From: Ornithinimicrobium pratense
Lineage (GTDB): Bacteria; Actinomycetota; Actinomycetes; Actinomycetales; Dermatophilaceae
Reading direction: 5' to 3'
Length of the DNA: 64,000 bases
NCBI RefSeq assembly: GCF_008843165.1
Contig: NZ_CP044427.1
Span: 2,728,001-2,792,000 of the forward strand
Numbering within the stretch: position 1 is the stretch's first letter; each line of letters begins with the position of its first letter. Below, piece by piece: positions 20,435-41,241 of the stretch. The notes under the pieces are model-generated. The model searched no databases and was not told where the DNA came from. It saw only the letters and a list, made by a program, of their open reading frames with translations. The position numbers and the translations under genes are program-made.

Positions 20435-20526
20435 CGACCCGGCCTCCTCGCCGTCCACGGGCCCAGTGTGGCCCTGTCCAGGCCCAAACTACCCCGTGGT
20501 CCGGGGTGGGTATGAGGTGGGCGAGG

Positions 20527-22557: not shown

Positions 22558-23400
22558 TCAGCCCGAGCCGCGCGGCTCCCACCGGAAGAAGCGCGAGGCC
22601 AGGAAGGTGCCCAGCAGGCCCCAGGCAGCCAGCACCCCCAGCTCCTGCCAGGCGATGGCTAGCCCGCTGGTCGCGGGGTCCAAAGCCTGCTGCAGCGCCA
22701 TCCCAAACGGCCGGACCGGCATCAGGTCCATCGCGGTGATCAGCGCCTGGGGCGCCCCCTCCAGCGGGAAGAAGACGCCTGCGGCGAAGAGCAGCGGGAA
22801 AGACAGGAACATGACGATCGGGATCGAGGTCTCCTGCGTCGGAACGATGTTGGCTACCGCCATCCCCAGCGCGGAGTAGGCCAGCACGCCCACCAGCAGG
22901 GCCAGGAGGCCGGCTATGGCAGGCAGCGGCTTGAGCTGGAGGCCGAACACCGCCCAGGCCACGAACACCATGAGCAGGGTGGAGAACAAGGCGACCAGGC
23001 TGTTGGTCAGGACCCGCGACAGCACGTAGACCCCGGGCGGGAGCGGGGTGCTACGCATACGGCGCAGGGTGCCCGCCTCGCGGCTGAAGACGGTCGCGAT
23101 CGCCAGGTTGATGAAGCAGGACGAAGCCACCACGAAGACGGTGATCCCCGCGAGGTTCCACTGCACGAAGGGCAGGCCGTCATAGAGCTCGCCCCGGTCC
23201 GTCAGCACGTTGAACAGGACCAGGAAGAACATCGGCAGGACGAGGGCGAAGAGCACCCCGATCGGGTTACGGAGGAAGATCTTGGTCGACCAGACGATCT
23301 CGCTGGCGAGCAGGGACATCGTCCCCGCCCGGCCGCTCGTCTGTGGTGTCGGTTGGTGGGTCGTCGTAGCGTCGGCGCTCAGCACCCGTGCGGTCGTCAT
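22558..23400 (-). CDS. ABC-2 type exporter permease of the RiPP cluster
   Basis: Inner-membrane permease (280 aa) with about six helices and the ABC-2 fold: an N-terminal cytoplasmic segment, then FLRNPIGVLFALVLPMFFLV, and a central loop REAGTLRRMRSTPLPPGVY. The start ATG overlaps the stop of the ATPase gene (ATGA), so the two are coupled. With the ATPase it forms a drug- or peptide-exporter, here most likely for the finished thiopeptide and for self-protection; that role is inferred from position. It is the last gene of the cluster. Confidence 0.88.
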   Translation of the reverse strand: MTTARVLSADATTTHQPTPQTSGRAGTMSLLASEIVWSTKIFLRNPIGVLFALVLPMFFLVLFNVLTDRGELYDGLPFVQWNLAGITVFVVASSCFINLAIATVFSREAGTLRRMRSTPLPPGVYVLSRVLTNSLVALFSTLLMVFVAWAVFGLQLKPLPAIAGLLALLVGVLAYSALGMAVANIVPTQETSIPIVMFLSFPLLFAAGVFFPLEGAPQALITAMDLMPVRPFGMALQQALDPATSGLAIAWQELGVLAAWGLLGTFLASRFFRWEPRGSG

Positions 23401-24395
23401 GACTGGCCATCCTTCGAACTGAGGTCGTTGTCGGCGGTCAGGGCGAGGTAGACGTCCTCGAGGCTCGCCCTGGAAATGTGGCTGTCGAGGACCTGGTGCT
23501 TGTGCTCCCTGCTCCACGACCGGAGCACGCCCAGCGCGGCCTCCGGGTCGTCCATGAGGAGTTCGATGTCGCGACCGACCTCCCGGGCGTGGCCCCGGAC
23601 CGAGTCCGGGAGGTCGTCGACGGTGAGGTGGTGACCGGCGCGGTCGGCCATCCGGACGATGAGCCGGCGCTGGCCGAGGTGCTCGGTGAGCTGGCTCGGC
23701 GTGCCCTCCGCGACCACGCGCCCGCTCACGATGACCGCGATCCGGTCGCACAGACGAGCGGCTTCGTCCATGTCGTGCGTGGTGAGAAGCACGGACGTGC
23801 CGAGCCGGCGCAGGCTCTCCACCAGTGACCACGCCTGCTGACGTGCCGACGGGTCGAACCCCGTCGTCGGCTCGTCGAGGAAGAGCAGCTCGGGACGGCC
23901 GATGATGGCTAGGGCCAGGTCCAGACGCCTGCGCTGACCCCCGGAGAGCCGCGAGACACGGCGTTGACCCATGTCACCGAGGCCCACGAAGTCGAGCACC
24001 TCCTGGCCACCGCGGGGGTTGTCGTAGTACGACGCGAACATCGACACCGTCTGGGTGACGCGGAGCTCCGGCGGGGGCCCCGCATACTGCAGCATGACCC
24101 CGACGCGGGCCCGGAAGTCGATGCCGGCCGTGGCGGGATCCACGCCCAGGACGTCGATCTGACCGCTGTCGGCCGTGCGCTGCCCTTCCAGGATCTCCAC
24201 GGTCGTGGTCTTGCCGGCACCGTTCGGGCCGAGCAGGCCGAGCACCTCTCCGCGGTGCACGTCGAGGTCGACGCCGCGCAGGGCGTCCACGCTGCCGTAG
24301 GACTTGCACAGGCCGCGGACGGAGAGGGCGAGATCGCGCCCGGAATGTCTGGGGTCAGCGGCGTTTCCGGTGGAGTGCTCTTCGAGGGTGCGCAC
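23397..24395 (-). CDS. ABC exporter ATP-binding protein of the RiPP cluster
   Basis: ATPase of a DrrA/CcmA-like exporter (332 aa). Walker A GPNGAGKTTT, signature LSGGQRRRLDLALA, Walker B LLFLDEPTTGFD and switch His in LTTHDMDEA are all intact. The C-terminal about 90 residues are a DrrA-type regulatory extension. I place the start at the GTG at 24395 because GGAGG sits six bases upstream; an ATG 18 codons earlier would add a basic stretch. It lies downstream of the precursor gene on the same strand, separated by a strong hairpin. Confidence 0.9.
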   Translation of the reverse strand: MRTLEEHSTGNAADPRHSGRDLALSVRGLCKSYGSVDALRGVDLDVHRGEVLGLLGPNGAGKTTTVEILEGQRTADSGQIDVLGVDPATAGIDFRARVGVMLQYAGPPPELRVTQTVSMFASYYDNPRGGQEVLDFVGLGDMGQRRVSRLSGGQRRRLDLALAIIGRPELLFLDEPTTGFDPSARQQAWSLVESLRRLGTSVLLTTHDMDEAARLCDRIAVIVSGRVVAEGTPSQLTEHLGQRRLIVRMADRAGHHLTVDDLPDSVRGHAREVGRDIELLMDDPEAALGVLRSWSREHKHQVLDSHISRASLEDVYLALTADNDLSSKDGQS

Positions 24396-24558
24396 TGTGT
24401 GCCTCCAATGTCGTCGGGGACCGCTACGTCGGAGTGACGGCTTCTTCAACTATGGGTCGGTCATGGGTGCCTGTGAAGGCTTTTCAGCCGCCACTAGCGG
24501 CCATGTCCTCGGGCGGACAAGCAGGCCCGGTCGGCCCGCCGTCAGGGGCCGCAGAACC

Positions 24559-24598
24559 GAGGTGGCCCATGCATCCACAGGGATGCATGGGCCACCTC
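24559..24598 (-). terminator. Perfect 18-bp hairpin after the precursor gene
   Basis: Arms at 24559-24576 and 24581-24598 are perfectly complementary with a four-base loop, 20 bases past the precursor stop. There is no T run. Because the exporter genes follow on the same strand, it may act as a partial terminator or 3' stabiliser, keeping precursor mRNA more abundant than exporter mRNA. Confidence 0.75.
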
Positions 24599-24617
24599 TA
24601 ACCGGGCTGCGCCGGGC

Positions 24618-24800
24618 TCAGGTGCAGCAGCTGCTGCAGGAGCAGGTGCCGCAGCACGAGGTCGAGTGGCAGCTGCTGCTGCCGGAGGAGGCGCCCGTCT
24701 CGGGCAACGCCATGGCGTCACGCACCTGGCTGACCTCGAGGACGTCCAGGTCCAGGTCGGCGAGGTCCAGGCCAAGGTCGAGGGTGTCGGTGTTCTGCAT
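24618..24800 (-). CDS. Thiopeptide-type precursor peptide with C-terminal Thr
   Basis: 60-residue peptide. Residues 1-37 are an acidic leader (LDLGLDLADLDLDVLEVSQV, then RDAMALPETGA) very like thiopeptide leaders such as that of lactazole. The rest is Ser/Cys/Thr/Gly rich with seven Cys and ends in Thr. The last 13 residues, SCCGTCSCSSCCT, match the micrococcin/nosiheptide pattern: Ser1 and Ser10 as the pair for the pyridine of a 26-atom ring, Cys at 2, 11 and 12, and a terminal Thr. The core could instead begin after the Ala at residue 37, giving 23 residues. The ribosome-binding site is weak. It is the substrate of the enzymes encoded at 26.5-39.6 kb. Confidence 0.88.
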   Translation of the reverse strand: MQNTDTLDLGLDLADLDLDVLEVSQVRDAMALPETGASSGSSSCHSTSCCGTCSCSSCCT

Positions 24801-24938
24801 GATGATCTGCTTTCTGTGTGATTCTTCGTGGACGAGCCCTAGGAGGGCCCCGGGACTCGGTTACTGCATGGATGGGTCGATGGTTCGGCAGGTCCGCTGA
24901 GCGGCACGGGGGGCCACGGCCCTGTGGCCAACGGCGGG

Positions 24939-25367
24939 TCATACCGCGTACCCGATCCCGACGGAGAGGAACGCGGCGATGCTCCAGCCGACGGTGGTCA
25001 CCCAGTTGCCCGACACCATGCGGCGGTGGACCTCCGGGTCGAAGCTCTTCATCAGGCGCTGGTGGTGGGCGCTCTGGACCGACCCGGCGAGGAAGCCCAC
25101 CAGCATCAGCACGGTCACCAGGGCGATGGCCATCCAGGTGGCGGCCCGGGTGTCGGCGCCGATCGCCACCGCGACGCCCGCTCCCAGGGCCAGCAGCGTC
25201 GCGGGCGTGGACAGGACCATGAGGCGGGCCTGGTTGGACCGGTTGACGGCCGGGGCGTCCTCGGGCGGGACGGAGGCGAGGGCGGGGTAGCTCACCAGCT
25301 GCGTGAGCCACATCAGGCCGGCCATGAACCAGCATGCGGCGAGCAGGCCGATCATCATCAGTGACAT
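24939..25367 (-). CDS. Four-helix membrane protein, daptide MpaC-like candidate
   Basis: 142 aa integral membrane protein with helices at about 1-28, 45-70, 73-95 and 120-141. Motifs WLTQLVSYPALASVPPE and FDPEVHRRMVSGNWVTTVGW mark a widespread family of four-helix proteins of unknown function. In daptide clusters a membrane protein (MpaC) accompanies the iron-ADH-like oxidase (MpaB) in C-terminal Thr processing. Here the two genes are divergent neighbours 29 bases apart, which supports the same partnership, but equivalence is inferred. AAGGAG lies seven bases before the ATG. The gene lies just upstream of the precursor gene. Confidence 0.75.
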   Translation of the reverse strand: MSLMMIGLLAACWFMAGLMWLTQLVSYPALASVPPEDAPAVNRSNQARLMVLSTPATLLALGAGVAVAIGADTRAATWMAIALVTVLMLVGFLAGSVQSAHHQRLMKSFDPEVHRRMVSGNWVTTVGWSIAAFLSVGIGYAV

Positions 25368-25396
25368 CAGTGAACTCCTTCGGTTAGGTTGATCTG

Positions 25397-26584
25397 GTGG
25401 TGCGAGGCTTCGTATGGACCGTTCCCACGCGCGTCGTCGCCGCACCTGGGCGCGGGGCGGAAGTGGTCGCCGCCATGGTCGGCACCGCGCCTGCGCTGGT
25501 CGTGGGGGACGCTGCCGTGCGCGACCGGGCCGAGCTCCTGGCGACCCACCTCGGCTGCGAGACCCATGAGGTGAGCACGCCGTGCGACTTCGGCGCCGTG
25601 GATCGACTCGCGGCCCTGGTGAGCCAGGCGTCTGCCCGCGTGGTCGTGGCGGTGGGCGGGGGCACGGTGATGGACCTGGCGCGGGTCGCGGCCCTGGCAG
25701 CGGCGGACCGGTCGCTCGCCGGACCCGACGGCTGGCCCGGTGAGGGGTTGCGCGGCAGAGCCGCGACGTCCGTGACGCAGGCCGCTCCGGCGGTGGTGGC
25801 GGTCCCCTCGACGGTGGGCACCGGAGCCGAGGTGAGCTCCCTGGCGGTCGTGGCCGAGGCTGGACGCACGCTGCGTGCGGTGCTGGCCGACCCTGGATTG
25901 CATCCCCGGGCGGCGGTCCTGGACGTCGAGATGCTGCGGTCGCTGCCACGACAGCTCGTCCGAGACGGTCTGCTCGAGACCGCGGCTCGTGCCCTCGGAC
26001 CCGCTCTCGCCGACGACGGGGCTCACCCGGCTGCCGACGAGTTCGCCGCGGTCTTCGTGCGCCGGGCGATGGCGCTCAGCGCGAAGGTCGGCGGCGGCCG
26101 GGCCGGAACCGTCCTGCCCGACCGGGTGCTCGCCGAGGCGGCCTGGCTGGCCACCTCCAGCGCCACCCAGTTGGCGTCGGTCGGACGGACGGTCTCCGAC
26201 AGCCCCTTGTGGCTGCTGCAGCATGCCGTGACTGGCTCCTCCGGCCAGCCCAAGGCGGCTGCGCTGCGGGCGCTGCTGCCGGTCCTGCTGGAGAGAGTCA
26301 CCCAGCAGGAGGACGTTGGGCCGCTGGTGACCCCCGGACGCTCCGCCACCCTGGCCAGCCTGATCACCGGGCCGGTCGGTTCGGAGGTCGCCGGGGCGCG
26401 AGCGCTGCACTCCGCCCTGCGGGACTGCGGTCTGCTCGACGGCCCCAGCGCCGCGATCGACCCGCAGGTCCATGCCGCCGACCTGGTCGAGCACGGCTTC
26501 ACCCGGAAGGGAGCTCTTGAGGGACAGTCGGTCGCGTCGTTGGCTCATGCGATATCCCCCTCGGTGGGATCCCAGCCCTCGTGA
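25397..26584 (+). CDS. Iron-containing alcohol dehydrogenase-like oxidase, daptide MpaB-like
   Basis: 395 aa group III ADH fold. The NAD site is intact (VVAVGGGTVMDLARV; AVPSTVGTGAE). The usual metal site is degenerate: the second-ligand His of the DAxxH motif is missing (DGLLETAARAL) and the HG-x-AN motif reads SSGQPKAAAL, though a His remains in LLQHAV. In daptides the homologous MpaB oxidatively decarboxylates the C-terminal Thr to a ketone; the precursor here ends in Thr. TAGGTT lies six bases before the GTG, implying a leaderless mRNA. Its last 40 bases overlap the end of the convergent operon. Confidence 0.82.
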   Translation: MVRGFVWTVPTRVVAAPGRGAEVVAAMVGTAPALVVGDAAVRDRAELLATHLGCETHEVSTPCDFGAVDRLAALVSQASARVVVAVGGGTVMDLARVAALAAADRSLAGPDGWPGEGLRGRAATSVTQAAPAVVAVPSTVGTGAEVSSLAVVAEAGRTLRAVLADPGLHPRAAVLDVEMLRSLPRQLVRDGLLETAARALGPALADDGAHPAADEFAAVFVRRAMALSAKVGGGRAGTVLPDRVLAEAAWLATSSATQLASVGRTVSDSPLWLLQHAVTGSSGQPKAAALRALLPVLLERVTQQEDVGPLVTPGRSATLASLITGPVGSEVAGARALHSALRDCGLLDGPSAAIDPQVHAADLVEHGFTRKGALEGQSVASLAHAISPSVGSQPS

Positions 26585-28317
26585 CCCAACGGCACCAGGT
26601 AGAGCGGCGCGTCGTCGACACCGTCCAGTCCCAGGGCCAGGGACAACCGGTCGTCGTAGATGCCTCCCAGCGGCACGCTGCGCAGGCCGAGCGCGGCCCC
26701 TACAAGAAGCAGGTTCTGCGTCAGGTGGCCGGCCTCCAGCAGCTGGAACCGCAAGGAGCGCAGGCCGTAGCGCTGGCGGGGATAGGCCAGGTCGGCCACG
26801 ACGGCTAGGAAGGCGGGAGCATCAACGGCATCGACCGTGGGCTGACCGTCCGGGTCGAGGAAGGGGGAGCAGCGCAGGAGGTCGGCCGTGCGTGTGGGGA
26901 CGGGCACCCGCTCCAGGGCGTGGCCGGAAGGCCGGTACTCGTACAGGCCGCTCGGGATCCCGTCGATGTGCGCGACCTGCACCAGCAAGCGGGTGGCCGA
27001 GCGCGCTCCGGCACTGGGGTAGGGCCGGACGGGGTAGGCGTCCTCAGGCCCGGCGCCCGGAGGGCGCAGCTCGTCGACGTCGCCGGCGGAGTACCACAGC
27101 AGGGTGCTGAGCTGACCGGAGGTGAGTTGCCCGTGGTAGCGGCCGTAGGCCGAACGGCGGTTCAGCAGCGCACTCAGCAGGGCCACCTGACCGGCCCCGC
27201 CCGGCTCGGGCCTCGGAAGCTGCACGATCTCGCCGGTGCCCACGACCGCGTTGCGGTGCAGCGGAGCGTCGGGGTCAGGGAACTGTGCGGCGCCGCGGGC
27301 GGGGAAGAACTTGGACCGCTCGTGGTAGACCCGGTCCGGGGCGTCCGGCGCCGGCGGGTGCATGCCACCGGAGTGGTCCACACCCAGGTAGGGGAAGGAG
27401 GCCAGCCAGGACAGGTGGCACTCGTCAGAGATCGTCAGTCCGAGCCTGTTGTGCATCATGTGCAGCTGGGACCCGAGGACCCACGGGATCGGCGTGGTCA
27501 GCTCGCCCGAGGAGTCCAGGGCCTGCAGCCCTCGCACGTAGCGGGCCACGGCCGCTCCCCACAGGCCGACCGCGCCGGTGCCTTCCTGGACCCGGCGACG
27601 GACCACCTCGCGGCGGGCTGCATGAGCTGCAGGCGCAGTCAGCAGGTCCCTCTCGGCCGCGTGACGCGCGGCGTCCAGGTCGACGTTCGGCGCCTCCGCC
27701 AGGGTCGGCCAGCCAAGCACGAAGCCGCGCAGGAAGCGGGCGGCCTCCGGGCCGTCGACGTCGGCGCCGGCGAGCAGGGCGTGCGCGAGGTCCAGGGCGA
27801 GGGCGACCCGTTGGGGGCCCGCAACGGTGCCCTTGACCACGCTCTCAGCGAGCCGCGAGGAGACCGCGAAGAGCTCCTCCGCCAGGGTCAGGGCGGCGGG
27901 CCCACCGTAGCGGTCAGTCTCCGGCTCGTAGTCGACCCGGTTGACCGTGCCGTGGCCGAACCAGTCCGACCCCTCCGGCGGCTGCCCCATGCCCGCCAGG
28001 AAGACGGCGGGGTCCACCGGGCTCGCGGGTGCGTGCCCGTGCAAAAACTCCTCGAGCGCCCCGGCGGCCCTGGCCACCACTGTGTCGTCGGCGTCGCGGA
28101 GGCGCCAGCGCACATGGGGGCCGCCGTCCCAGTAGCGCAGGAAGAACTGCGAAGAGATCTCGCCCGACCTCTCCATGGCCCGCCCCACCGGACCGACGAC
28201 CTCGGTGATGAGCCGGTCGGCCACGGCGGCGTCGTGCACGTAGGCGTGCAGCGTGGTCCAGCCTGCGCCCGGCGCCCGGGTGCTGGCGATGTGGTGGTCC
28301 GCGTCGATGGTCCTCAC
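26545..28317 (-). CDS. LazF-like fusion: glutamate-elimination domain and SagB-type azoline dehydrogenase
   Basis: 590 aa two-domain enzyme. Residues about 1-290 are the small LanB C-terminal (thiopeptide-type) domain that eliminates glutamate from Ser/Thr to give dehydroamino acids; note GWTTLHAYVHD and FFLRYWDGGPHVRWRLR. Residues about 370-580 are an FMN nitroreductase of the SagB family (RRSAYGRYHG, PYPSAGARSATRLL, GIPSGLYEYRPSG, LLEAGHLTQNLLLVGAALG) that oxidises azolines to azoles. The same fusion is known as LazF in lactazole synthesis. A GTG start has AAAGGAG five bases upstream, 17 bases after the previous stop. It is the last gene of the operon. Confidence 0.9.
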   Translation of the reverse strand: MRTIDADHHIASTRAPGAGWTTLHAYVHDAAVADRLITEVVGPVGRAMERSGEISSQFFLRYWDGGPHVRWRLRDADDTVVARAAGALEEFLHGHAPASPVDPAVFLAGMGQPPEGSDWFGHGTVNRVDYEPETDRYGGPAALTLAEELFAVSSRLAESVVKGTVAGPQRVALALDLAHALLAGADVDGPEAARFLRGFVLGWPTLAEAPNVDLDAARHAAERDLLTAPAAHAARREVVRRRVQEGTGAVGLWGAAVARYVRGLQALDSSGELTTPIPWVLGSQLHMMHNRLGLTISDECHLSWLASFPYLGVDHSGGMHPPAPDAPDRVYHERSKFFPARGAAQFPDPDAPLHRNAVVGTGEIVQLPRPEPGGAGQVALLSALLNRRSAYGRYHGQLTSGQLSTLLWYSAGDVDELRPPGAGPEDAYPVRPYPSAGARSATRLLVQVAHIDGIPSGLYEYRPSGHALERVPVPTRTADLLRCSPFLDPDGQPTVDAVDAPAFLAVVADLAYPRQRYGLRSLRFQLLEAGHLTQNLLLVGAALGLRSVPLGGIYDDRLSLALGLDGVDDAPLYLVPLGHEGWDPTEGDIA

Positions 28318-28334
28318 GGGAACTCCTTTCGGTC

Positions 28335-32788: not shown

Positions 32789-35466
32789 CGGATCGCCTCC
32801 TCGACGAGCTGGGTGGTCAGGTGCTGCTCGGATGGCTGCTCGGTGGCCATCTCAAAGACGTGCTCGGTGCAGGTCGGCTCGCCGGGCACCGACCCGGGTG
32901 CGGGAAGGGTCTCGGTGATCCACAGTGAGGGGGCCTCACCGAACCAGGAATGGAGCTGGCTCACATGGAGCGGTGACCCCCAGCGGACCCGCAGCGGTTT
33001 GGCCGTGAGGGCTGCGAGCTGGGTCCGCCAGCGCTCGGCGGCGTCCAGCGTCTCCCCAGGCTCGGCCGACGCGGCCGGCTCCGACATGGCGGTGACGAAG
33101 CAGTCCTCCGGTATGCCGTGCTGCAGGCGCCACGTCAGCAGGTCCGCGGCGGCAGCGACGGGGTCGGTGCCCGGTCCCGGTAGGGGGATCTGTGCGGCTG
33201 GGACCGCCCAGACCCGCCGGGAGAGCACCAGGGACCCCAGCACCACCCGTGGGTAGGCGCGGACCACCTGCCGGTCCTCGCCGACGAGGTCGTCGTCCGC
33301 CTCACCCGCGGGGTCGAGCTGGACCAGGGGCGAGTCGCCCAGGACGTAGTAGATGGCAGTCTCGTAGGGCAGCAGGAAGGGCACCAGCAGACCCAGGTAG
33401 ATCGGCTCCACGTCCTCACCGTCGGGACCCTGCAGCCGTAGTCTGCGCTCCGCGGGGTCATCGACGACGGTGAGGTCGTCGATGCCGAGGTCGTGGCCCG
33501 ACCGTGGTCCCATCAGGGTGTGCAGCTGCTCCTCGAGCAGCGGCGGATGAACGTTGGCGTTGAAGCCTTGGACCGGCCGCAGCTCGCGAGCACCCGGGGG
33601 GCACACCTCGGCCACCCACTCACGCACCTCACGCAACGCCGACTCTCCCCACATGTCCAGGAACCGGGAGGCGAACTGACCGCGCCCGCCGTAGATGTTG
33701 TTCAGGACGGCGCCGCCCTCGGCGGTCCGCTGCAGGAACACGGCGTAGGCGCGACCGTGGCGGTCCTTCGCCGGCACGGCGGCTGCGGCACTCGCCGCCC
33801 AGTCACGGTCCAGCTCCAGCACCTCCTGCCCAGCCAGACCAGCTCGACGAACCTGGTCGGCCAGGGTCGCCCGCGGGGCCATCGCTGCTGCGGCCTGGGG
33901 GTGGGTGCGGCCCAGCCCCTCGACCGCCTGCGCGAGGCTGTCCGTCGCGCTGGAGAAGACGTCGGGGAGGAGCTCCACGAGATCCCTCAGCGGGCGCCTT
34001 GCCCCCTCGCCGTGCGCCTCCACGAAGCTGGAGCGGATGGCAGCGCGGGTGATGGCGAGGTTGTCGAACGCCGGGAGGGCGGGGACCAGACACTCCAGGT
34101 CACGCTGCACCGTCGACCAGTCCTCCGGGCGGCGTGCCATCGAGCGCGTGAGCACGACGTCCTCGTAGATGGTGAACCCGGCCGCGGGGCGCGGCTGACC
34201 CAGGGCGGCGAAAGACTCCTCGACCGCCCGGTCGCAGGCCTCCACCTGCGCAGCTGCCTCCTCGCCACCCGAGCTCGGGGCGGACGCCAGCGCAGTGACC
34301 GCCTCGTCCAGGCAGGCCAGTGCCGCGTCAACCGCGCCCAGCACCACCCTGACGGCTGGCGGGGACTTCTCCGTGACTGCAGCCAGGATGTGCCGCGCGT
34401 CAGCCACGGGGTCTTCGACGTGGTCGTCGACGGGAAGGACAGGGATCACGAGACCGATCGCCAGCAGCCGGTCGACGGCCTGGCGCGCGCGGGGGTCCGC
34501 GCCCCCAATGCTGAGCGCCAGATCGGCCGGACGCACGTGGCGTCCGTCGCTGAGCAGGTCCAGCACAGCGTCGACGAGCGCCGATCGCCGGACGGTGGTG
34601 CGAGCCGTCTGCGTGGCGAAGACGCGAGGTTGCTGCTCCGGGGTGTCCAGGTGTTGCTCGAGGACGACCGCGTCGTCGTCGCGACGCACGACCCGGGCAG
34701 CCTGGTGCGGCCAGGCACTGCGGATGAGCGGATGTCTGGACGCGGCGTCCAGCAGGCGCAACAGGAGAACCCGGTTGACCTCCACGCGGTTCACCCGCTC
34801 GCCACCGGCGGGCACCGGCTCGGTCCCATCGGTGCCGGTGGCCCAGTGGGCGCGGCCGACGATCGTATAGGTGCTGAATGGGCTGGTCCGCCCGATCGCC
34901 CTCTCGGCGAACCGCAGGAGCCGGCCCTCGTGCTTGCGTGCACGCTTCTGGGGTCGCGCGCCGTCCCGCACGTAGGAGTCCACGGTCCGGGCCAGCCCGG
35001 GCGAGGACAGCGCGGTGGCCCGCCGCATGTCGGTGACACTCAGCACTTCCCGCAGTCCGGCACGCTCCGCGGTACGACGGCCCTCCAGGGCTGCGGCGAG
35101 CTCCTCTCGGGCACTCTCGGCCTGGCTCTGAGCCTGCAGGACACGGCGGGTCCGACCCAGAGCTGCCTGGATGTCATGGCCCTTGTCAGACAACGCATTC
35201 AGGGTGCTCAGGAGCTCCGGGCCGCGGGTCACGGGCCGGCTGGCGTGCAGGGAGCGTCGGCAGTGCAGCAGGCAGCGACGCTCGATCGCGTCCACCAGCG
35301 GGACCAGCTCGTAGAGGTCGTCCGCCAGCGCCTGCGCCTCCTGCCGTCGGGCCCGCTCGGCCGTCTCAAGGGTGCGGAGCGCGGTGGTCCAGGCGTCCTC
35401 GACCTGCCAAACCTCCGGCTCGGCGACGGGGTTGACCCGGATCAGTGACCAGGATGCGTGCTTCAT
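32785..35466 (-). CDS. LanB-type dehydratase N-terminal glutamylase (LazB-like)
   Basis: 893 aa enzyme of the class I lantibiotic dehydratase N-terminal family. It transfers glutamate from Glu-tRNA to Ser/Thr side chains of the azole-bearing precursor; elimination is done by the separate domain in the LazF-like protein. Key stretch RLLRFAERAIGRTSPFSTYT matches the (R)-P-T-P-F-G region of the family, and the C-terminal part has GRGQFASRFLDMWG and GFNANVHPPLLEE. The split dehydratase is the rule in thiopeptide pathways. The ATG at 35466 overlaps the aminotransferase stop (ATGA), and GGAGCAG lies upstream. Confidence 0.93.
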   Translation of the reverse strand: MKHASWSLIRVNPVAEPEVWQVEDAWTTALRTLETAERARRQEAQALADDLYELVPLVDAIERRCLLHCRRSLHASRPVTRGPELLSTLNALSDKGHDIQAALGRTRRVLQAQSQAESAREELAAALEGRRTAERAGLREVLSVTDMRRATALSSPGLARTVDSYVRDGARPQKRARKHEGRLLRFAERAIGRTSPFSTYTIVGRAHWATGTDGTEPVPAGGERVNRVEVNRVLLLRLLDAASRHPLIRSAWPHQAARVVRRDDDAVVLEQHLDTPEQQPRVFATQTARTTVRRSALVDAVLDLLSDGRHVRPADLALSIGGADPRARQAVDRLLAIGLVIPVLPVDDHVEDPVADARHILAAVTEKSPPAVRVVLGAVDAALACLDEAVTALASAPSSGGEEAAAQVEACDRAVEESFAALGQPRPAAGFTIYEDVVLTRSMARRPEDWSTVQRDLECLVPALPAFDNLAITRAAIRSSFVEAHGEGARRPLRDLVELLPDVFSSATDSLAQAVEGLGRTHPQAAAAMAPRATLADQVRRAGLAGQEVLELDRDWAASAAAAVPAKDRHGRAYAVFLQRTAEGGAVLNNIYGGRGQFASRFLDMWGESALREVREWVAEVCPPGARELRPVQGFNANVHPPLLEEQLHTLMGPRSGHDLGIDDLTVVDDPAERRLRLQGPDGEDVEPIYLGLLVPFLLPYETAIYYVLGDSPLVQLDPAGEADDDLVGEDRQVVRAYPRVVLGSLVLSRRVWAVPAAQIPLPGPGTDPVAAAADLLTWRLQHGIPEDCFVTAMSEPAASAEPGETLDAAERWRTQLAALTAKPLRVRWGSPLHVSQLHSWFGEAPSLWITETLPAPGSVPGEPTCTEHVFEMATEQPSEQHLTTQLVEEAIR

Positions 35467-36833
35467 CGGGACTGCTCCTTCGAGGTCGTGACCGGGCGGG
35501 AGGGAACGGCCCGCACGTGCGCACGACCCGGATGGGGAATCCGTTCCAGGACGTCGAGCACCGTGCGGACGCTCCGTTCCCAGAGGGACTCGTCGATGGT
35601 CAGCGGTGGGAAGAGGCTGATCCCGCGCGGCGAGCCGTGGACGATGACGCCGGCATCGGCGCATCGCCCGATGACGGCCCCGACCAGGTCTGAGGATGGA
35701 CGCTGCGCACCAGGTGCTCCGTGCAGGTGGAGGCCGATCATCAGGCCTGCACCGGTACGCCTGGTGAGCGCGGCGGGCCATCTCTCATCGATGAGATCGG
35801 CTGCGGCAGAGCCGAGTCGGGCGGCTCGTGCGGGAAGGTCCTCGTGCACGATGACGTCGAGCGTCGCCAACGCCGCGGCACAGGCCAGAGGGTTCCCGCC
35901 CTGGGTCTCCCCGTGGAGGAAGGGAGCTGAGCCCCGGTCGAGCGCTCTGGCCACGTCCTGCGAGACCAGCACGGCTCCCAGCGGCAGGTAGCCGGCTGTC
36001 AGGGCTTTACTCGTGACCAGCAGGTCGGGGCGCAACCCGCGAGCTGTCGACGCCCACAGGTGTCCCGTCCGACCCAGGCCGGTGGCGACCTCGTCGGCGA
36101 TGACGAGGAAGCCGTGCCGGTCCGCGAGTTCGCGCAGGGTGCGGCACCAGGAGTCAGGGAGGTCGAGGACCCCGGCGCTGCCCAGGACCGGCTCGACGAC
36201 GACGGCGGCGATGCGGCCGCCCAGCAGCGCCGCCGTCTCCAGCAGGACCTCAGTCGCCTCGTCATCGGCTCGGCCGTCGCCGGGGGTCGGGAGTCGGAGG
36301 ACCCCGTCCGAGCTGACCCCGTCCAAGGCCTGGTCCAGATCCTCCCCGGTCAGCGCTGCGCTCCCGATGAGAGTCCCGTGGTAGCCGTCCGAGAGCACCG
36401 CGACGAGGTCGCGACGCTGGCCACAGTTGGCCGCGACCCTGTGGGCGAGCATCACGGCCGTCTCCACGCCCGCCGCCCCCCCGGTGCAGAGCAGTGCGCG
36501 GCCGGTTCCCTCTGGGCCGAGCTCGATGAGCCGCTGGGCGAGCCGGACGGCCGGGACCGACTGCCCACGGAAGAGCGTTGCGTAGGCCACCTGATCCAGC
36601 TGTCCACGGACCGCGTCGTCCACCTCGTGGCGCCGGTGCCCCAGGGCCACGTTCCACAGGCCGGAGGTGCCGATGACACTCACTCGTCCGGCGCGGTCGA
36701 GCTCGACGTCGCCCTCCCCTTCCACGACGGTGCGGGCAGCGCCGCGGAACAGGGTGCGGTCGGTCATCGGGTGGTGCAGCGGGTGATCGATGGCCAGGCT
36801 TTCCAAGCCGGAATGGACGCTCGCTGGTCTCAT
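35463..36833 (-). CDS. Class-III PLP aminotransferase, daptide MpaD-like
   Basis: 456 aa fold-type I aminotransferase. PLP motifs: VLSDGYHGTLIGSAALTG, the Asp of LVIADEVATGLGRTGHLW, and the Schiff-base Lys in LLVTSKALTAGYLPLG (around residue 276); FLHGETQGGNPLACAAAL follows. In daptides the aminotransferase MpaD converts the C-terminal ketone made by MpaB to a primary amine. Its coupling (ATGA overlaps at both ends) between the methyltransferase and the thiopeptide glutamylase genes is the strongest sign that both chemistries act on one peptide. Other roles, such as supplying an amino acid, cannot be excluded. GGAGG precedes the start at seven bases. Confidence 0.85.
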   Translation of the reverse strand: MRPASVHSGLESLAIDHPLHHPMTDRTLFRGAARTVVEGEGDVELDRAGRVSVIGTSGLWNVALGHRRHEVDDAVRGQLDQVAYATLFRGQSVPAVRLAQRLIELGPEGTGRALLCTGGAAGVETAVMLAHRVAANCGQRRDLVAVLSDGYHGTLIGSAALTGEDLDQALDGVSSDGVLRLPTPGDGRADDEATEVLLETAALLGGRIAAVVVEPVLGSAGVLDLPDSWCRTLRELADRHGFLVIADEVATGLGRTGHLWASTARGLRPDLLVTSKALTAGYLPLGAVLVSQDVARALDRGSAPFLHGETQGGNPLACAAALATLDVIVHEDLPARAARLGSAAADLIDERWPAALTRRTGAGLMIGLHLHGAPGAQRPSSDLVGAVIGRCADAGVIVHGSPRGISLFPPLTIDESLWERSVRTVLDVLERIPHPGRAHVRAVPSRPVTTSKEQSR

Positions 36834-39589
36834 GCCGGAACCTCCAGCTCCACGGGGGCGGACGTCGGCCGCTCAACGGCGCGGCGCTGATCGACCAGGT
36901 CGGAGGCGGTGGCGTGCGTCTCGACGGCTCGGGCGCGCGCCAGCCGGACAGGTCGGGGGTCCGCGGCGCTGTCGGTCGGCGTGGCAACGTCCACCAGACG
37001 CAGACCCGCTCGCCTCATGACCTGGCTGAGGATGGTGCGCGGCCAGCGGTGATGGCGGTCGGTGGTCAGGTAGGTGGCGCCGTCCGGGGCCCACCACAAC
37101 CAGGTCGCGACGCTCGTCAGCCCCCGGCCACCCGGCTCGACCCGCTCGCTGGCGACGAGGGTGCCGGTGGATTCCAGTGAGGGCACTCGCTCCACGGCTC
37201 CAGTCAGGTCCTCCGCCGGGATGTCGCCGCTCACGTAGTCGATGAGCAGGGCGCCGCCAGGATGCAGGTGCCTGCGGGCTGCGCGCAGCAGGTGCTCGAG
37301 CTCCTCGGGTGCGAGCACCGAGATGGATGTCTCGCCAACGATGACCGCGTCATAGCGCTGGGGCAGGTGCAGGGTGGTGGCATCCGCGCAGACGAGATCG
37401 ACCCGTTCGCTGACCTCGGCCGGGCTGTCCGCGAGCCGCTCGCGGGCCTTGTCCAGCATGCCTTGCTCCCGGTCTACAGCGGTGACCAGGTGCCCAGCCG
37501 CTGCCAGCGCAAGGGCCAGGCGTCCACCGCCGGAGAGCAGCTCGAGCACCCGGGCCCCGCCGCCGACGGCCTGCTCGACCTCGAGGACCCATCGCTGTTC
37601 GTCCGGCAGACCGGACAGCGGCAGGGCGTTCCACAGCTCCGCCCCCTCCTGGTGGTAGAGACGGATCCATCGTGGGTTGTCTGCCAGGACGGCCACCTGC
37701 GGGTCCGGCTCAGGCTCGGGGCGCGCGACTCCGGGCAGGGAGATCCCGCGGCGTGCCAATGCGTCCAGCAGTCTCCAGAGCCGCTCCTGGCGAGAGGGGT
37801 CCGGGTCGGGTGCGAAGGCTGCGTCCTCCCAGGCGTGGCGGACCAGGTGGTGGCGCAGCACGAGGGCGGCCTGGCGGGAGACGAGCACGGTCTGCGCGGC
37901 CTCAGGCGCGTGGACGGCGCCGCGCAGCCGGCCGACGAGGACACCCACGCCGAGTTTCTCCTGCGCCGGCGGGTGCCAGGAGGCTCCCGGGTCTGGCTCG
38001 TCACCGGCTGTGGCGAGCGCCCGAAGGCAGGCTGCGAGGGCGGCGGAGACGGGATGGCTCGCGCGGTGCCTGGCTGCCGCCAGCTCGCCGGCGGCGACCC
38101 AGAGGCTCGCCGCCTGCCCTTCGCTGGCTGCGACGGCGGGCATCACCGGCGCCGGAAGTGCGGGCCGCAGGCCGTGGTTCCAGACCGCGGAGGCTGACGT
38201 CCGGCACGCCGGATCCAGCGCGGCCGGCCAGGCCAGGGTGTCGATGGTCGGGGCGTCCGCCCCCGTCGCCCAGGTCGAGGCGGCGCGCGCCCACAGGGTT
38301 GGATCGGTCAGGCGCGCCCGCGCCTCGTCCACCACCTCTGCGGGCAAGGGCAGGTAGGTCCCCTCCAGCGCCGAGGGCAGGTCGAGGTGACCTGGTGGCG
38401 TCCAGATGAGGGTTGAGCTCCCTGTCAGATCTGCGATGGGGGCGAGCTCCTCCTCGTGCTCGGGCAGCCGGTCGACCAGCACGAGGTCGCCCAGCACGTC
38501 CACGACCTCCGGTCGCGGCAGGTCGCCCCGCAGTGCCCCCCGAGCACGGTCACGCAAGGTCCTGCGCTGCTGGTCGACCTGGGCACCGATGGAACCGTCC
38601 GGCCAGTTTGCCGCGGCGGTCGATGGGCTCAGCACCCACGACGGGTCCACCAGGGCCGCCACTCGGGCGGCGTCAAAGCCCTGGAGGCTGCTTGCCATAG
38701 CGGGGTCCGGCGCCAGTGGCTGACCGCCCGGACCCATCAGGGTGATCGAGCACGGGGCGTCTGCGGCAATCAGACTCTCGACCGTCAGCGGGGAGTCGGT
38801 GCAGACGCACACCTGCGCACCGGTGCTACGGACATCCTGGACGATGTCGACGGCCTGGCTCTTCGAGTCCTCGCCGGCAATCCGCACCACGACGACGACT
38901 GGAGTGCGTTGCGGCAAGAGCTGGCGCAGGCGGTGCAGGGTCCGGCGTGCCTCGCCTCGTCGCGCCGGTGACCAGGCCGAGCTCACGAGCAGCAAGGGCT
39001 CGGAGCCGCTGAGGTCTACAGCCGCCGCCAGGACGCGCTGCGTCGCCTCGGCGCCTAACCCCTCCTCGGACAGGAAAAGACCGGCTCGCAGCTCGGCCAG
39101 CGGGTGCAAGGTCGTCGACAGTCCCTCGCCATCGGGCGGAAGCAGCCGGTGTAGCGACCCGTCGCACGGCCTGGCCGCCGCATCGCGCACGCCGTCCTGG
39201 ATCTCCCCGGTGGACAGATTGAGGCCACGCTGGGCTGCCACGGCACGCATGATGTCCTCGGGGGCCTCGCAGGTCTGCAAGTCGGCAGACGTCGGAACAC
39301 CTGCGGACCAGCCGTCCCCGACCACCACGGCGCACCCCTGCGCGGCCAGGCCCGCGGTCGCGGGCATGACCTCGCCGCGGCGGACCACCACCCGCTCCGG
39401 GAGGAGCGCGACCGGCATACCCAGCCGCGTCAGCGCACGAGCCGCCACCAGGACAGAGGCGTTGTCACGCACCACCGCCGGCCGGCCGAGCTCGCCACCG
39501 GAGAGGATCCGGCCGGCCAGCAGGTCGTCCCCCACGGCCACGCCGCGGTGAGGGACCCAGGCCAGAGCCGTGCGTGCGTCGATGGACAT
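36830..39589 (-). CDS. SAM methyltransferase with long N-terminal region, daptide MpaM-like
   Basis: 919 aa protein. The C-terminal part (about residues 640-800) is a class I SAM methyltransferase with motif I VLELLSGGGRLALALAAAG, an acidic end of strand 2 (VTAVDREQG), DLVCADATTLHLP and GGALLIDYVSGD. The preceding 600 or so residues are unassigned; they include Rossmann-like or nucleotidyl-type stretches (PAVVRDNASVLVAARALTR, GSEPLLLVSSAWSPARRGEA). In daptides MpaM dimethylates the new terminal amine, which suits a gene coupled to the aminotransferase. The ATG follows the repeat-peptide stop by six bases. Confidence 0.8.
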   Translation of the reverse strand: MSIDARTALAWVPHRGVAVGDDLLAGRILSGGELGRPAVVRDNASVLVAARALTRLGMPVALLPERVVVRRGEVMPATAGLAAQGCAVVVGDGWSAGVPTSADLQTCEAPEDIMRAVAAQRGLNLSTGEIQDGVRDAAARPCDGSLHRLLPPDGEGLSTTLHPLAELRAGLFLSEEGLGAEATQRVLAAAVDLSGSEPLLLVSSAWSPARRGEARRTLHRLRQLLPQRTPVVVVVRIAGEDSKSQAVDIVQDVRSTGAQVCVCTDSPLTVESLIAADAPCSITLMGPGGQPLAPDPAMASSLQGFDAARVAALVDPSWVLSPSTAAANWPDGSIGAQVDQQRRTLRDRARGALRGDLPRPEVVDVLGDLVLVDRLPEHEEELAPIADLTGSSTLIWTPPGHLDLPSALEGTYLPLPAEVVDEARARLTDPTLWARAASTWATGADAPTIDTLAWPAALDPACRTSASAVWNHGLRPALPAPVMPAVAASEGQAASLWVAAGELAAARHRASHPVSAALAACLRALATAGDEPDPGASWHPPAQEKLGVGVLVGRLRGAVHAPEAAQTVLVSRQAALVLRHHLVRHAWEDAAFAPDPDPSRQERLWRLLDALARRGISLPGVARPEPEPDPQVAVLADNPRWIRLYHQEGAELWNALPLSGLPDEQRWVLEVEQAVGGGARVLELLSGGGRLALALAAAGHLVTAVDREQGMLDKARERLADSPAEVSERVDLVCADATTLHLPQRYDAVIVGETSISVLAPEELEHLLRAARRHLHPGGALLIDYVSGDIPAEDLTGAVERVPSLESTGTLVASERVEPGGRGLTSVATWLWWAPDGATYLTTDRHHRWPRTILSQVMRRAGLRLVDVATPTDSAADPRPVRLARARAVETHATASDLVDQRRAVERPTSAPVELEVPA

Positions 39590-39595
39590 CTTGGC

Positions 39596-39991
39596 TCACA
39601 CCGCCGACGAGCTGTCTGCCAGGTTCGTCGCGGCGGCACCCCAGATCAGGCCACCGTCCGGATCACCGTCCTGCACGCTCCCGCCACCCCAGATCAGGCC
39701 ACCGTCCAGATCACCGTCCTGCACGCTCCCGCCACCCCAGATCAGGCCACCGTCCGGATCACCGTCCTGCACGCTCCCGCCACCCCAGATCAGGCCACCG
39801 TCCAGGTCACCGTCCTGCACGCTCCCGCCACCCCAGATCAGGCCACCGTCCGGATCACCGCTGCCGCCGGCTGCACCGGCGAGCATCGCTCCACCCAGCA
39901 GTGCAGTGGCGCAGGCTCGGGACAGGGCGCTGGTGGTGCGAGTGATCGGACGGGCGAAGGGGCGAACTTCCTTGCTCACGCTGTGTCTCAT
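39596..39991 (-). CDS. Small tandem-repeat peptide of unknown function at the head of the RiPP operon
   Basis: 131 residues from the ATG at 39991. The first about 45 residues are basic then hydrophobic (ALSRACATALLGGAMLAGAA), like a Sec signal peptide or leader. They are followed by 4.5 copies of a 16-residue unit DPDGGLIWGGGSVQDG, with Pro and Leu alternating at position 2, and a short tail AAATNLADSSSAV. It is the first gene of the operon, six bases from the methyltransferase start. AAGGAG sits five bases before the chosen ATG (two before an adjacent ATG at 39994). I do not recognise the family. Options are a secreted immunity or binding protein, or a second, multi-core precursor. Confidence 0.7.
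   Translation of the reverse strand: MRHSVSKEVRPFARPITRTTSALSRACATALLGGAMLAGAAGGSGDPDGGLIWGGGSVQDGDLDGGLIWGGGSVQDGDPDGGLIWGGGSVQDGDLDGGLIWGGGSVQDGDPDGGLIWGAAATNLADSSSAV
39638..39856 (-). repeat. 48-bp in-frame tandem repeat, about 4.6 copies
   Basis: Near-identical 48-base units differing at one or two positions that alternate Pro (gatccggac) and Leu (gatctggac or gacctggac) codons, giving a 96-base higher-order period. There are no spacers, so it is not a CRISPR array. Confidence 0.95.
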
Positions 39992-40069
39992 CATTGCTCC
40001 TTGACGGATCGGGCTAGAGATCGACTAAGTGGGTGCGGAGCCGGCTGCTCGTCAGCTCTGACCACCATG

Positions 40070-40086
40070 CTTGACCCCGGATCAAG
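40070..40086. promoter_or_regulatory. Candidate operator in the divergent promoter region of the RiPP cluster
   Basis: CTTGACCCCGGATCAAG is a 17-base palindrome with seven of eight arm positions paired. It lies between the divergent biosynthetic operon and the regulator gene. The half-site CTTGAC recurs at 40000 (before the operon start) and 40193 (before the regulator start), as expected for an autoregulated switch. Confidence 0.4.
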
Positions 40087-40215
40087 GGTTTGGGAAGGCT
40101 TTTCGATGGCCTGCCGAGGCCTTGGCCGCAGGTAGACATCGCAGGCTTGCTGGCGTCTTATCCGACCGGTTGCGGAAGGGCGCTGCTACCCTCTTGACCG
40201 GAACGGGGAGGTTCG

Positions 40216-41241
40216 ATGCTTGAGTGGTTGAGCTTGGACAAGGACCACGAGCGGGTCTATCGCCTTCTGCTTGCCTCGCCCCGCTCCACCGTGGACCAGG
40301 TGGCCACGTCCTTGGCCCTGGATGTGGACGAGGCCCAGCGCCGGATCGACGCACTCGTGGCGGCCAAGCTCCTCGATGCGGCCGGCGTTGACGGCCTGCT
40401 GAAGGTGCCTGCGCCGTTGGCAGCCATCGGCGGCCTCATCAGCACCCAGCAGGCTGAGCTGGCACAACGCCAGGAGGAGCTTGAGCTGGCCAGGGAGTCT
40501 ATGGGGGCGCTGGTGGACGAGTTTCTGACCGGGTACGACACGAAGGTCTCCCAGGAGATCGAGTTCCTGCCGTCCGCCGACCTCGTGCGAGCCCGCCTCT
40601 ACCAGCTTTCGCGCTCGGTGCAGCGCGAGGTGCAGACCGTGCTGCCGAACGTCCAGATCGCCCGGGAGGCCCTGGAGGCGAGCCTGCCACTCGATCTGGA
40701 GATCCTGGCGCGAGGGGTGACGGTGCGCACCGTGTGCTCGCCCAAGCTCCTGTCCGAGAAGGGCGCTCACGAGCACTTCGCGCGCCTCGCGGAGGCCGGA
40801 GGACGGGTCCGGGTGCACCCTGGCCCGCCGAGCCGCATGGTGCTGGTGGACGGCCAGCAAGGTCTCATTCCGGTGGATCCGGACGATCCTGCTCGCGGCG
40901 CCTACCTACTCAAGAGACCGGCCCTGACGGCGCCCCTGGTCACGCTGTTCCAGGAGATCTGGTGCAAGGCGGTCCCGTTCGAGAGCACACAGCGCTCGGA
41001 GGCAGAGATCGACGATGCGGGCCTCGGGGAGCGGGTGCGGATGGCAGTCGTCCTGCTGGCGCAGGGCCAGAAGGACGCCGCGGTCGCGCGCCGCATGAAT
41101 GTCTCCACCCGCACGGTGCGGCGATGGTTGGCGCAGGCCATGCAGACCCTGGGTACGGACAGCCGCTTCGAGCTGGCGGTGGAGGCGACGCGGAGAGGAT
41201 GGCTGCCCGCAGCCGCCGTCCACGTGGACGGCGAGTTCTGA
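40216..41241 (+). CDS. Cluster-situated HTH transcriptional regulator (TrmB-like N-terminus, LuxR-type C-terminus)
   Basis: 341 aa DNA-binding protein. The N-terminus is a winged-helix of TrmB type (VYRLLLASPRSTVDQVATSL). The middle (about residues 110-250) is a TrmB/PLD-like domain. The C-terminus is a LuxR-type HTH (AQGQKDAAVARRMNVSTRTV, about 278-330). It is transcribed away from the biosynthetic operon over a shared 221-base region and is the likely pathway-specific regulator; the ligand is unknown. GGGGAGG precedes the ATG by four bases, and TACCCT at 40187-40192 is a possible -10 element. Confidence 0.87.
   Translation: MLEWLSLDKDHERVYRLLLASPRSTVDQVATSLALDVDEAQRRIDALVAAKLLDAAGVDGLLKVPAPLAAIGGLISTQQAELAQRQEELELARESMGALVDEFLTGYDTKVSQEIEFLPSADLVRARLYQLSRSVQREVQTVLPNVQIAREALEASLPLDLEILARGVTVRTVCSPKLLSEKGAHEHFARLAEAGGRVRVHPGPPSRMVLVDGQQGLIPVDPDDPARGAYLLKRPALTAPLVTLFQEIWCKAVPFESTQRSEAEIDDAGLGERVRMAVVLLAQGQKDAAVARRMNVSTRTVRRWLAQAMQTLGTDSRFELAVEATRRGWLPAAAVHVDGEF

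What the first reader, a model, noticed from the sequence alone, without database searches (positions are those of the whole stretch)
22558..41241. Hybrid thiopeptide-daptide biosynthetic gene cluster
A complete lactazole-type thiopeptide set (precursor, glutamylase, pyridine synthase, E1-YcaO, elimination-SagB) is interleaved with a daptide-like tailoring set (iron-ADH-like oxidase, four-helix membrane protein, class-III aminotransferase, SAM methyltransferase). The aminotransferase and methyltransferase genes are coupled to the thiopeptide genes by ATGA overlaps, so both sets should act on one peptide. Known: daptide enzymes turn a C-terminal Thr into a dimethylated diamine; thiopeptides otherwise end as acids, amides, or (micrococcin) a decarboxylated Thr made by short-chain dehydrogenases. 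Inferred: a thiopeptide with a basic tertiary-amine tail, a combination I do not know to be described.
Basis: partly seen in the sequence, partly recalled or inferred. Interest (0 to 1): 0.94.

Follow-up and report, generated by a model that had tools for sequence, protein, structure and literature searches.

The report
Thiopeptide cluster with amine-tail enzymes
An actinobacterial gene cluster holds a complete thiopeptide-antibiotic gene set together with three daptide-type enzymes, and its product is predicted to be a thiopeptide whose tail ends in a basic dimethylated amine, which would be a chemical ending not yet reported for this antibiotic class as far as the searched papers show.

Summary
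The genes are real. A lactazole-type thiopeptide set sits with a dehydrogenase (DH), an aminotransferase (AT) and a methyltransferase whose best NCBIfam models are the three daptide models, all below cut-off. The precursor ends in Thr. The DH has E/R/W/K at the four Fe-ADH metal-ligand columns, as do 23 of 23 daptide DHs; generic Fe-ADHs do not. Predicted product: a thiopeptide with an N,N-dimethyl-1,2-propanediamine end. Instead the methyltransferase is fused to a ~640-aa N-terminal part in which residues 549-619 weakly match the DapB RRE (not supported by AF2). The cluster is an ~18 kb insertion: flanks lie 22.0 kb apart here, 3.3-5.0 kb in 18 of 30 congeners. Co-occurrence of daptide and thiopeptide genes was already mentioned in print (PMC10036551, PMC12670281), so this is a new, DapB-less variant of a known kind. 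No chemistry was tested.

The parts
22558..23400 (-). ABC-2 type permease, likely exporter
   Evidence: PF01061 4.9e-21 and PF12698 1.1e-20 on the longer ORF; start codon; six hydrophobic peaks
23397..24395 (-). ABC transporter ATPase (overlaps the permease by ATGA)
   Evidence: Walker A, LSGGQ and Walker B read by eye (motif names recalled, no family search was run on it); start
24618..24800 (-). thiopeptide precursor, 60 aa, ends in Thr60; S54 is the only column invariant over six aligned precursors
   Evidence: NF033400 48.7 bits (cut-off 30), TIGR03892 45.5 (25), PF19409 46.7 (23.5); alignment A4
24939..25367 (-). 142-aa membrane protein, four hydrophobic peaks, weak HemJ/UPF0093 likeness; role unknown (immunity is a guess)
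   Evidence: (below cut-off)
25397..26584 (+). daptide-type dehydrogenase (DapC-like) on the opposite strand; metal-ligand columns read E/R/W/K
   Evidence: NF041822 1.2e-32, 113 of 300 cut-off bits; signature
26545..28317 (-). LazF-like fusion: glutamate-elimination domain + SagB-type azoline dehydrogenase
   Evidence: TIGR03891 107.7 bits (cut-off 48.45), TIGR03605 98.2 (78.4)
28335..31634 (-). leader-binding/E1-like partner fused to YcaO cyclodehydratase (LazD+LazE equivalent)
   Evidence: TIGR03604 275.6 bits (cut-off 219.25), TIGR03882 44.4 (36.9), PF02624 1.5e-72; start
31631..32788 (-). pyridine synthase (LazC/TbtD-like)
   Evidence: NF045556 4.9e-40, below equivalog cut-off
32785..35466 (-). 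glutamylase (LazB-like)
   Evidence: PF04738 4.9e-23, above cut-off (longer ORF scanned); true start from ATGA overlap
35463..36833 (-). class III aminotransferase, daptide-like (DapD-like); ATGA overlaps on both sides
   Evidence: NF041821 7.6e-100, 334 of 450 cut-off bits; tree; overlaps
36830..39589 (-). 919-aa fusion: residues 1-540 without a match, 549-619 RRE-like, 644-876 methyltransferase (DapM-like)
   Evidence: NF041820 7.6e-37, 127 of 175 cut-off bits; one relative besides itself in the protein search
37733..37945 (-). RRE-like stretch of the fusion (residues 549-619) weakly matching the C-terminal RRE of DapB
   Evidence: hhalign score 34.4, P 7.4e-5, probability 62%; hmmsearch with the DapB profile does not see it and AF2 of the piece alone shows no strands
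36962..37660 (-). methyltransferase domain of the fusion (residues 644-876)
   Evidence: PF13649 2.8e-16, NF041820
39596..39994 (-). 132-aa repeat protein just upstream of the fusion gene; signal-peptide-like start (by eye), repeats around GGLIWGGGSVQDGD; role unknown
   Evidence: 48-bp repeat x4.7; no Pfam or NCBIfam hit
40216..41241 (+). divergent HTH (LuxR/GerE-type C-terminus) regulator
   Evidence: PF00196 1.3e-6, PF13384 4.7e-8

Best explanation
This ~18 kb cluster encodes a lactazole-type thiopeptide gene set together with a dehydrogenase, an aminotransferase and a methyltransferase of daptide type, and these three enzymes are predicted to turn the C-terminal Thr60 of the thiopeptide precursor into a dimethylated diamine. 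Inferred route: the E1-YcaO and SagB proteins make thiazoles from the core cysteines; the glutamylase and elimination domain make dehydroalanines; the DapC-like DH oxidises and decarboxylates Thr60 (aminoacetone end); the AT converts the ketone to an amine; the methyltransferase domain adds two methyls (Dmp end); the pyridine synthase closes the ring, probably between S43 and S54, and releases the leader. The order of the C-terminal steps relative to azole formation is open. Substrate delivery, done by the separate DapB in daptides, would here come from the RRE-like stretch fused to the methyltransferase and/or from the thiopeptide leader-binding protein. The ABC pair would export the product. 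Shown: gene content, overlaps, Thr end, DH signature, tree place of the AT, no DapB detected by profile, insertion. Everything chemical is inferred.
For: Family hits. Precursor ends in Thr, the one strict substrate need of daptide enzymes named in PMC10036551/PMC12670281 (passages). DH: D,H,H,H metal ligands (8, 8, 7 and 7 of 8 generic Fe-ADHs; ligand columns assigned from recalled FucO ligands) are E,R,W,K in the window DH, 23 of 23 daptide DHs (L062 and L173 are one genome), 2 of 2 thiopeptide-context DHs and 3 of 3 others. AT: with three metagenomic ATs it is sister to 24 daptide ATs (88/79), inside a daptide-like half (97/81) that leaves out 21 generic ATs. ATGA overlaps. Co-occurrence elsewhere: the two closest ATs (P0004, P0005) and two of the three closest pyridine synthases outside the window (P0125, P0126) are listed on contigs of the same two lengths, 16926 and 22178 bases, most simply the same contigs. 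Series: of 394 genomes of the class two others carry pyridine synthase and daptide DH close together: G379 with a Thr-ending berninamycin-type precursor and no AT found, G092 with DH + AT. Aminoacetone is a known thiopeptide part (TP-1161, PMC7345825 passage). Fusion: DapB-RRE match and dapB-dapM-dapD order in 16 of 23 daptide loci with all three found.
Against: All three daptide models score below their cut-offs, and the AT and methyltransferase models also ring below cut-off in 14 of 14 control genomes, so their E-values alone are not specific; the DH model rings in 1 of 14. The pyridine synthase is below cut-off too. The DH has a very long branch (2.58), its place with daptides is not starred (82/87), and at a neighbouring column it keeps His where daptides have N (20 of 23) or T. 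The daptide-like half of the AT tree also holds Crossiella L004, which lies among polyketide-like genes (by eye), and 12 ungrouped ATs of which only P0006 lies in the window's clade; their contexts were not seen. Methyltransferase tree unresolved (49/40). No DapB found, which PMC10036551 found essential in E. coli; PMC12670281 saw no activity without it on one substrate and minimal activity on another. hmmsearch with DapB profiles does not detect the fusion; AF2 of the fusion is poor (pLDDT 37) and of the RRE-like piece gives helices only (pLDDT 62). The leader lacks the ELExMEAP motif. A Thr end is not diagnostic: 1 of 8 distinct precursor-like ORFs at thiopeptide loci without detected daptide genes also ends in Thr. 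The G092 precursor candidate ends in Ser. No product is known.
Confidence: 0.72

Rival explanations
1. The tail stops short of the tertiary amine: DH gives an aminoacetone end or DH + AT give a primary amine, and the methyltransferase methylates another place (for example an N-terminal, His45 or side-chain site) or has lost its role.
For: Methyltransferase tree unresolved; domain fused to a part without known kin; thiopeptide loci exist with DH and no AT found (G379) or DH + AT and no such methyltransferase found (G092).
Against: Best family model is daptide_MTase, 127 bits against 68 for the next; two post hoc motifs, both in the window and P0002, are found in 18 of 23 and 15 of 23 daptide methyltransferases and in 0 of 9 generic ones; ATGA overlap with the AT gene.
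Confidence: 0.15
2. The DH, AT and methyltransferase act on a second peptide, for example the 132-aa repeat protein upstream of the fusion gene, and the thiopeptide ends as an ordinary acid.
For: The repeat protein gene lies directly before the fusion gene (6 bases apart) and has no Pfam or NCBIfam hit.
Against: The repeat protein ends in Val, not Thr, and has a signal-peptide-like start (by eye); the thiopeptide precursor ends in Thr; AT and pyridine synthase relatives appear to share contigs.
Confidence: 0.05
3. The DH/AT/methyltransferase belong to a small-molecule tailoring route (an amino-sugar or amino-ketone) that merely neighbours the thiopeptide genes.
For: Class III ATs and Fe-ADHs are common; an AT of the daptide-like half occurs outside an evident RiPP cluster (Crossiella L004).
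Against: DH ligand signature of the daptide class; ATGA overlap AT/glutamylase; repeated co-occurrence.
Confidence: 0.06
4. The cluster is a decayed or silent hybrid that makes nothing.
For: Found in 1 of 31 genomes of the genus; few relatives.
Against: Frames open, third-position GC 0.84-0.90 in the seven large enzyme genes, overlaps kept, PLP-lysine region and YcaO PxPxP end intact.
Confidence: 0.02

Closest known systems
Lactazole (laz) cluster, PMC7210931
   Same: Same division of labour: LazB glutamylase, LazC pyridine synthase, LazD/E leader binding + YcaO, LazF elimination-dehydrogenase fusion (passages); counterparts of all found here.
   Different: LazD and LazE are separate there, fused here; here DH, AT and methyltransferase are added and the precursor ends in Thr.
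Daptides (mpa, tfDap, saDap; PMC10036551, PMC12670281)
   Same: DapC-, DapD- and DapM-type enzymes and a C-terminal Thr; metal-ligand loss in DapC.
   Different: No separate DapB detected, no DapP in the cluster, no ELExMEAP leader motif, enzymes below family cut-offs, methyltransferase fused to an RRE-like stretch plus a ~540-aa unknown part, thiopeptide core.
TP-1161 / berninamycin-type thiopeptides (locus L153 here; TP-1161 from a PMC7345825 passage)
   Same: Thiopeptide genes with a Thr-ending precursor and a daptide-type DH; TP-1161 contains aminoacetone.
   Different: In L153 no AT or daptide-like methyltransferase was found, and it has three YcaO-domain genes and a TsnR methylase. That L153 makes TP-1161 or a relative is not shown.
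Micrococcin/thiocillin C-terminal decarboxylation
   Same: Oxidative decarboxylation of a C-terminal Thr in a thiopeptide.
Hominicin
   Same: Dmp end on a peptide with other RiPP modifications (PMC10036551 passage).
   Different: Dehydrobutyrine peptide, not a thiopeptide; the kin cluster has DapBCDM homologs.

Membership tests
Thiopeptide (lactazole type) | thiopeptide precursor with Cys/Ser-rich core | tested here: met
   three models above cut-off; alignment A4
Thiopeptide (lactazole type) | YcaO cyclodehydratase with leader-binding partner | tested here: met
   TIGR03604 and TIGR03882 above cut-off
Thiopeptide (lactazole type) | split dehydratase: glutamylase + elimination domain fused to SagB | tested here: met
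Thiopeptide (lactazole type) | pyridine synthase | tested here: met
   NF045556 4.9e-40; below the equivalog cut-off; the model rings in 0 of 14 control genomes
Thiopeptide (lactazole type) | pyridine-centred macrocycle in the product | not testable with these tools
   no product data
Daptide | DapB (DUF-RRE) annotated in the cluster (inclusion rule of PMC10036551) | tested here: not met
   profile A3: 0 hits in the whole genome; controls G325 5.6e-108, G040 2.3e-40. An RRE-like stretch fused to the methyltransferase is inconclusive
Daptide | DapC dehydrogenase | tested here: met
   best model NF041822 (113 of 300 bits); E/R/W/K signature; tree place not starred
Daptide | DapD aminotransferase | tested here: met
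   best model NF041821 (334 of 450 bits; next best place in this genome 159 bits); sister to 24 daptide ATs, weakly supported
Daptide | DapM methyltransferase | tested here: inconclusive
   best model NF041820 (127 of 175 bits; next best place in this genome 50 bits); tree unresolved
Daptide | precursor with invariant C-terminal Thr | tested here: met
Daptide | ELExMEAP leader motif | tested here: not met
   absent from the 60-aa precursor, read by eye
Daptide | DapP RRE-peptidase | tested here: not met
   no peptidase hit among the cluster proteins scanned with Pfam; not searched genome-wide
Daptide | Dmp-modified product | not testable with these tools
   no product data

The most novel reading that the evidence does not exclude
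A distinct thiopeptide subclass with a tertiary-amine (Dmp) end, made by a DapB-free daptide module in which the leader-reading RRE of DapB has been fused onto the methyltransferase, so that thiopeptide and daptide machineries read one leader and finish both ends of one peptide.
Probability: 0.4. Interest if true: 0.8.

Novelty: new variant of a known kind. Interest (0 to 1): 0.62.

Why it matters
Thiopeptides are potent but poorly soluble ribosome-targeting antibiotics (recalled). A natural route to a basic tail would bear on that problem and show how two unrelated modification systems share one precursor. The DapB question is directly testable: either the DH works without DapB on an azole-rich substrate, or the fused RRE replaces it. 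The series DH, DH + AT, DH + AT + methyltransferase in thiopeptide loci (L153, L152, window) gives a ready set for testing stepwise evolution of the C-terminal module. The E/R/W/K signature offers a simple marker for finding DapB-less clusters, which the 2023 inclusion rule discards.

Tried and rejected
Rejected: the four-helix membrane protein as MpaB (MpaB is DUF-RRE per PMC10036551; no DapB-profile match). Rejected: filing the cluster as a daptide (DapB and leader motif not met). Led nowhere: AF2 of the fusion from two sequences (pLDDT 37) and of residues 530-640 alone (helices only, pLDDT 62), which does not support the RRE reading; no fold search was run. The methyltransferase tree gave no resolved place. 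Fusion residues 1-540: no Pfam/NCBIfam hit at E<=1, no hhalign match to nine other profiles, the thiopeptide E1/leader-binding set among them. The RRE match grew with the DapB set (P 0.17 with 8 DapBs; 0.0071 with more) and the sub-region was then chosen, so it is post hoc; controls: 0 of 100 column shuffles and 0 of 43 windows from AT and pyridine-synthase pairs reach it. The two methyltransferase motifs were also written after seeing the alignment. The glutamylase search in the family gave 8 distant matches (26-32% identity) in 185 other genomes and was not followed. Glycomyces ATs fall with the generic ATs. Rows dropped: AT segments covering 250 residues or fewer; two of ten generic Fe-ADH loci without the motif used to cut them (L151, L181); two of the ten listed generic methyltransferase loci (L183, L184), which gave no row. 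The 'atp' query was cut one base out of frame and supports no claim. Passages of PMC8448680 and PMC4603692 added nothing decisive. The original TP-1161 papers are not held.


Full report
What is there. Eleven genes from 22558 to 39589 form the core, ten of them on the minus strand: ABC permease and ATPase, thiopeptide precursor, a 142-aa membrane protein, then (plus strand) a Fe-ADH-like dehydrogenase, then elimination-SagB, E1-YcaO, pyridine synthase, glutamylase, class III aminotransferase and a 919-aa fusion with a C-terminal methyltransferase. A repeat protein (39596-39994) lies just upstream and a divergent HTH regulator (40216-41241) faces the run. ATGA overlaps join methyltransferase/aminotransferase, aminotransferase/glutamylase and pyridine synthase/E1-YcaO.

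Thiopeptide half. The precursor passes three thiopeptide models. Leader and core align with precursors from two genomes whose thiopeptide loci show no daptide gene by blast (L162, L163: SGSSSC[HT]STSCCG in common, 55-57% identity), and S54 is the only residue invariant over six precursors, the expected second pyridine Ser; the tail differs and ends CCT here. Enzyme set and domain make-up match the lactazole system as described in PMC7210931 (passages), with LazD and LazE fused.

Daptide half. The best NCBIfam models of the three enzymes are daptide_DH (1.2e-32), daptide_amino (7.6e-100) and daptide_MTase (7.6e-37), each below its cut-off. Sub-cut-off matches of the AT and methyltransferase models occur in all 14 control genomes, so more is needed. 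For the DH a sharper test exists: the four metal-ligand columns of Fe-ADHs (assigned from recalled FucO ligands) read D,H,H,H in 8, 8, 7 and 7 of 8 generic proteins, and E,R,W,K in 23 of 23 daptide DHs (L062 and L173 are the same genome), in both thiopeptide-context DHs, in three further DHs and in the window DH; at a neighbouring column the window keeps His where 20 of 23 daptides have Asn. PMC12670281 reports loss of metal ligands and metal-independent, NAD-dependent activity for TfDapC (section 7). The AT forms a clade with three metagenomic ATs, sister to 24 daptide ATs (88/79), within a half of the tree that leaves out 21 generic ATs (97/81); that half also holds ATs whose context was not seen and one Crossiella AT among polyketide-like genes. 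The methyltransferase tree does not resolve.

Missing DapB and a candidate replacement. A 13-row DapB profile finds nothing in this genome, nor in G092 and G379, while controls score 5.6e-108 and 2.3e-40. The fusion protein has one relative in the protein search (which scored the 7996 candidates sharing most words), 891 aa, 45% identical over its full length. hhalign of this pair against DapB finds residues 549-619 matching the C-terminal RRE of DapB: score 34.4, P 7.4e-5, probability 62%; the best of 43 windows from two other protein pairs scores 20.3, and none of 100 column shuffles reaches it; nine other profiles give P of 0.34 or more with the whole N-terminal part and 0.12 or more with the sub-region. 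In 16 of 23 daptide loci with all three genes found the order is dapB-dapM-dapD, the order fusion-aminotransferase here. Against it: hmmsearch with DapB profiles sees nothing, and single-sequence AF2 of the piece shows no RRE fold. I read this as a likely, not shown, take-over of the DapB RRE by the methyltransferase gene.

Spread. Among 394 genomes of the class (own included), 41 match the pyridine synthase model and 92 the daptide_DH model at E<=1e-20 (11 over its cut-off); besides the window genome, two carry both close together. In G379 (L153) the precursor is berninamycin-type and ends in Thr, and a DH but no AT was found; in G092 (L152) DH + AT were found and the precursor candidate ends in Ser. 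A 7.2-kb record titled as a Phaeobacter MAG (L006) holds a TIGR03891 protein and a methyltransferase-AT fusion (daptide_amino 5e-96) beside a gene that blasts to the glutamylase. The two closest ATs and two of the three closest pyridine synthases lie on contigs of the same lengths (16926, 22178). In 57 relatives (30 of the same genus) no match at E<=0.001 reaches the first 615 residues of the fusion. The flanking genes FTHFS (18767-20458) and ModB (42502-43389) lie 22,047 bases apart here and 3,276-4,974 bases apart in 18 of 30 congeners; in the other 12 one gene is missing or the two are on different contigs or far apart. The cluster is therefore an insertion particular to this genome among those held.

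Prior art. PMC10036551 (passages) says that major subgroups of daptide BGCs encode YcaOs and thiopeptide-like pyridine synthases, and its inclusion rule demanded DapB. PMC12670281 and its preprint PMC12338566 (first part, section 7 and passages) say that some daptide-associated YcaOs are annotated as thiopeptide-type. What I read of them describes no product of such a hybrid and no DapB-less cluster; the supplements were not read. Searches list no characterised thiopeptide with a Dmp end; the library lacks most subscription journals.

Verdict. A real thiopeptide cluster with a daptide-type C-terminal module, best read as making a Dmp-ended thiopeptide (0.72). It works like a daptide at its tail but is not filed as a daptide, because DapB and the leader motif were tested and not met. 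New variant of a known kind.

Noticed in passing
39596-39994 (-): 132-aa protein with signal-peptide-like start and 4.7 copies of a 48-bp repeat (GGLIWGGGSVQDGD[PL]D), directly upstream of the fusion gene, no family hit; could be a second secreted product or a scaffold.
   Followed up: partly
24939-25367 (-): Four-peak membrane protein with weak HemJ/UPF0093 likeness inside a thiopeptide cluster; immunity or oxidase role unknown.
   Followed up: partly
L152 3260-3472 (+), 14996-17544 (-): Thiopeptide cluster with daptide-type DH and AT, no daptide-like methyltransferase found, precursor candidate (no family hit) ending in CCCCS; a Ser end would give another diamine.
   Followed up: partly
L153 10773-12029 (-), 16043-16210 (-): Berninamycin-type precursor ending in Thr with a daptide-type DH and no AT found; could explain an aminoacetone end of the TP-1161 kind.
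   Followed up: partly
L006 946-6657 (+): Glutamylase-like gene (by blast), TIGR03891 protein and methyltransferase-AT fusion in a record titled Phaeobacter MAG; possible non-actinobacterial hybrid.
   Followed up: partly
L172 2604-5099, L177 11155-13614: Two of the DapB genes fetched carry an N-terminal extension of about 450 aa.
   Followed up: no
L154 1185-2627, L155 10163-11350, L156 10069-11217: DHs with the E/R/W/K signature but no other daptide or thiopeptide gene found by blast beside them; possible unrecognised C-terminal-modifying clusters.
   Followed up: no
26545-26584 and 25367-25397: The plus-strand DH gene overlaps the end of the elimination-SagB gene by 40 bases and starts 29 bases from the divergent membrane-protein gene, so any shared promoter region is very short.
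   Followed up: no
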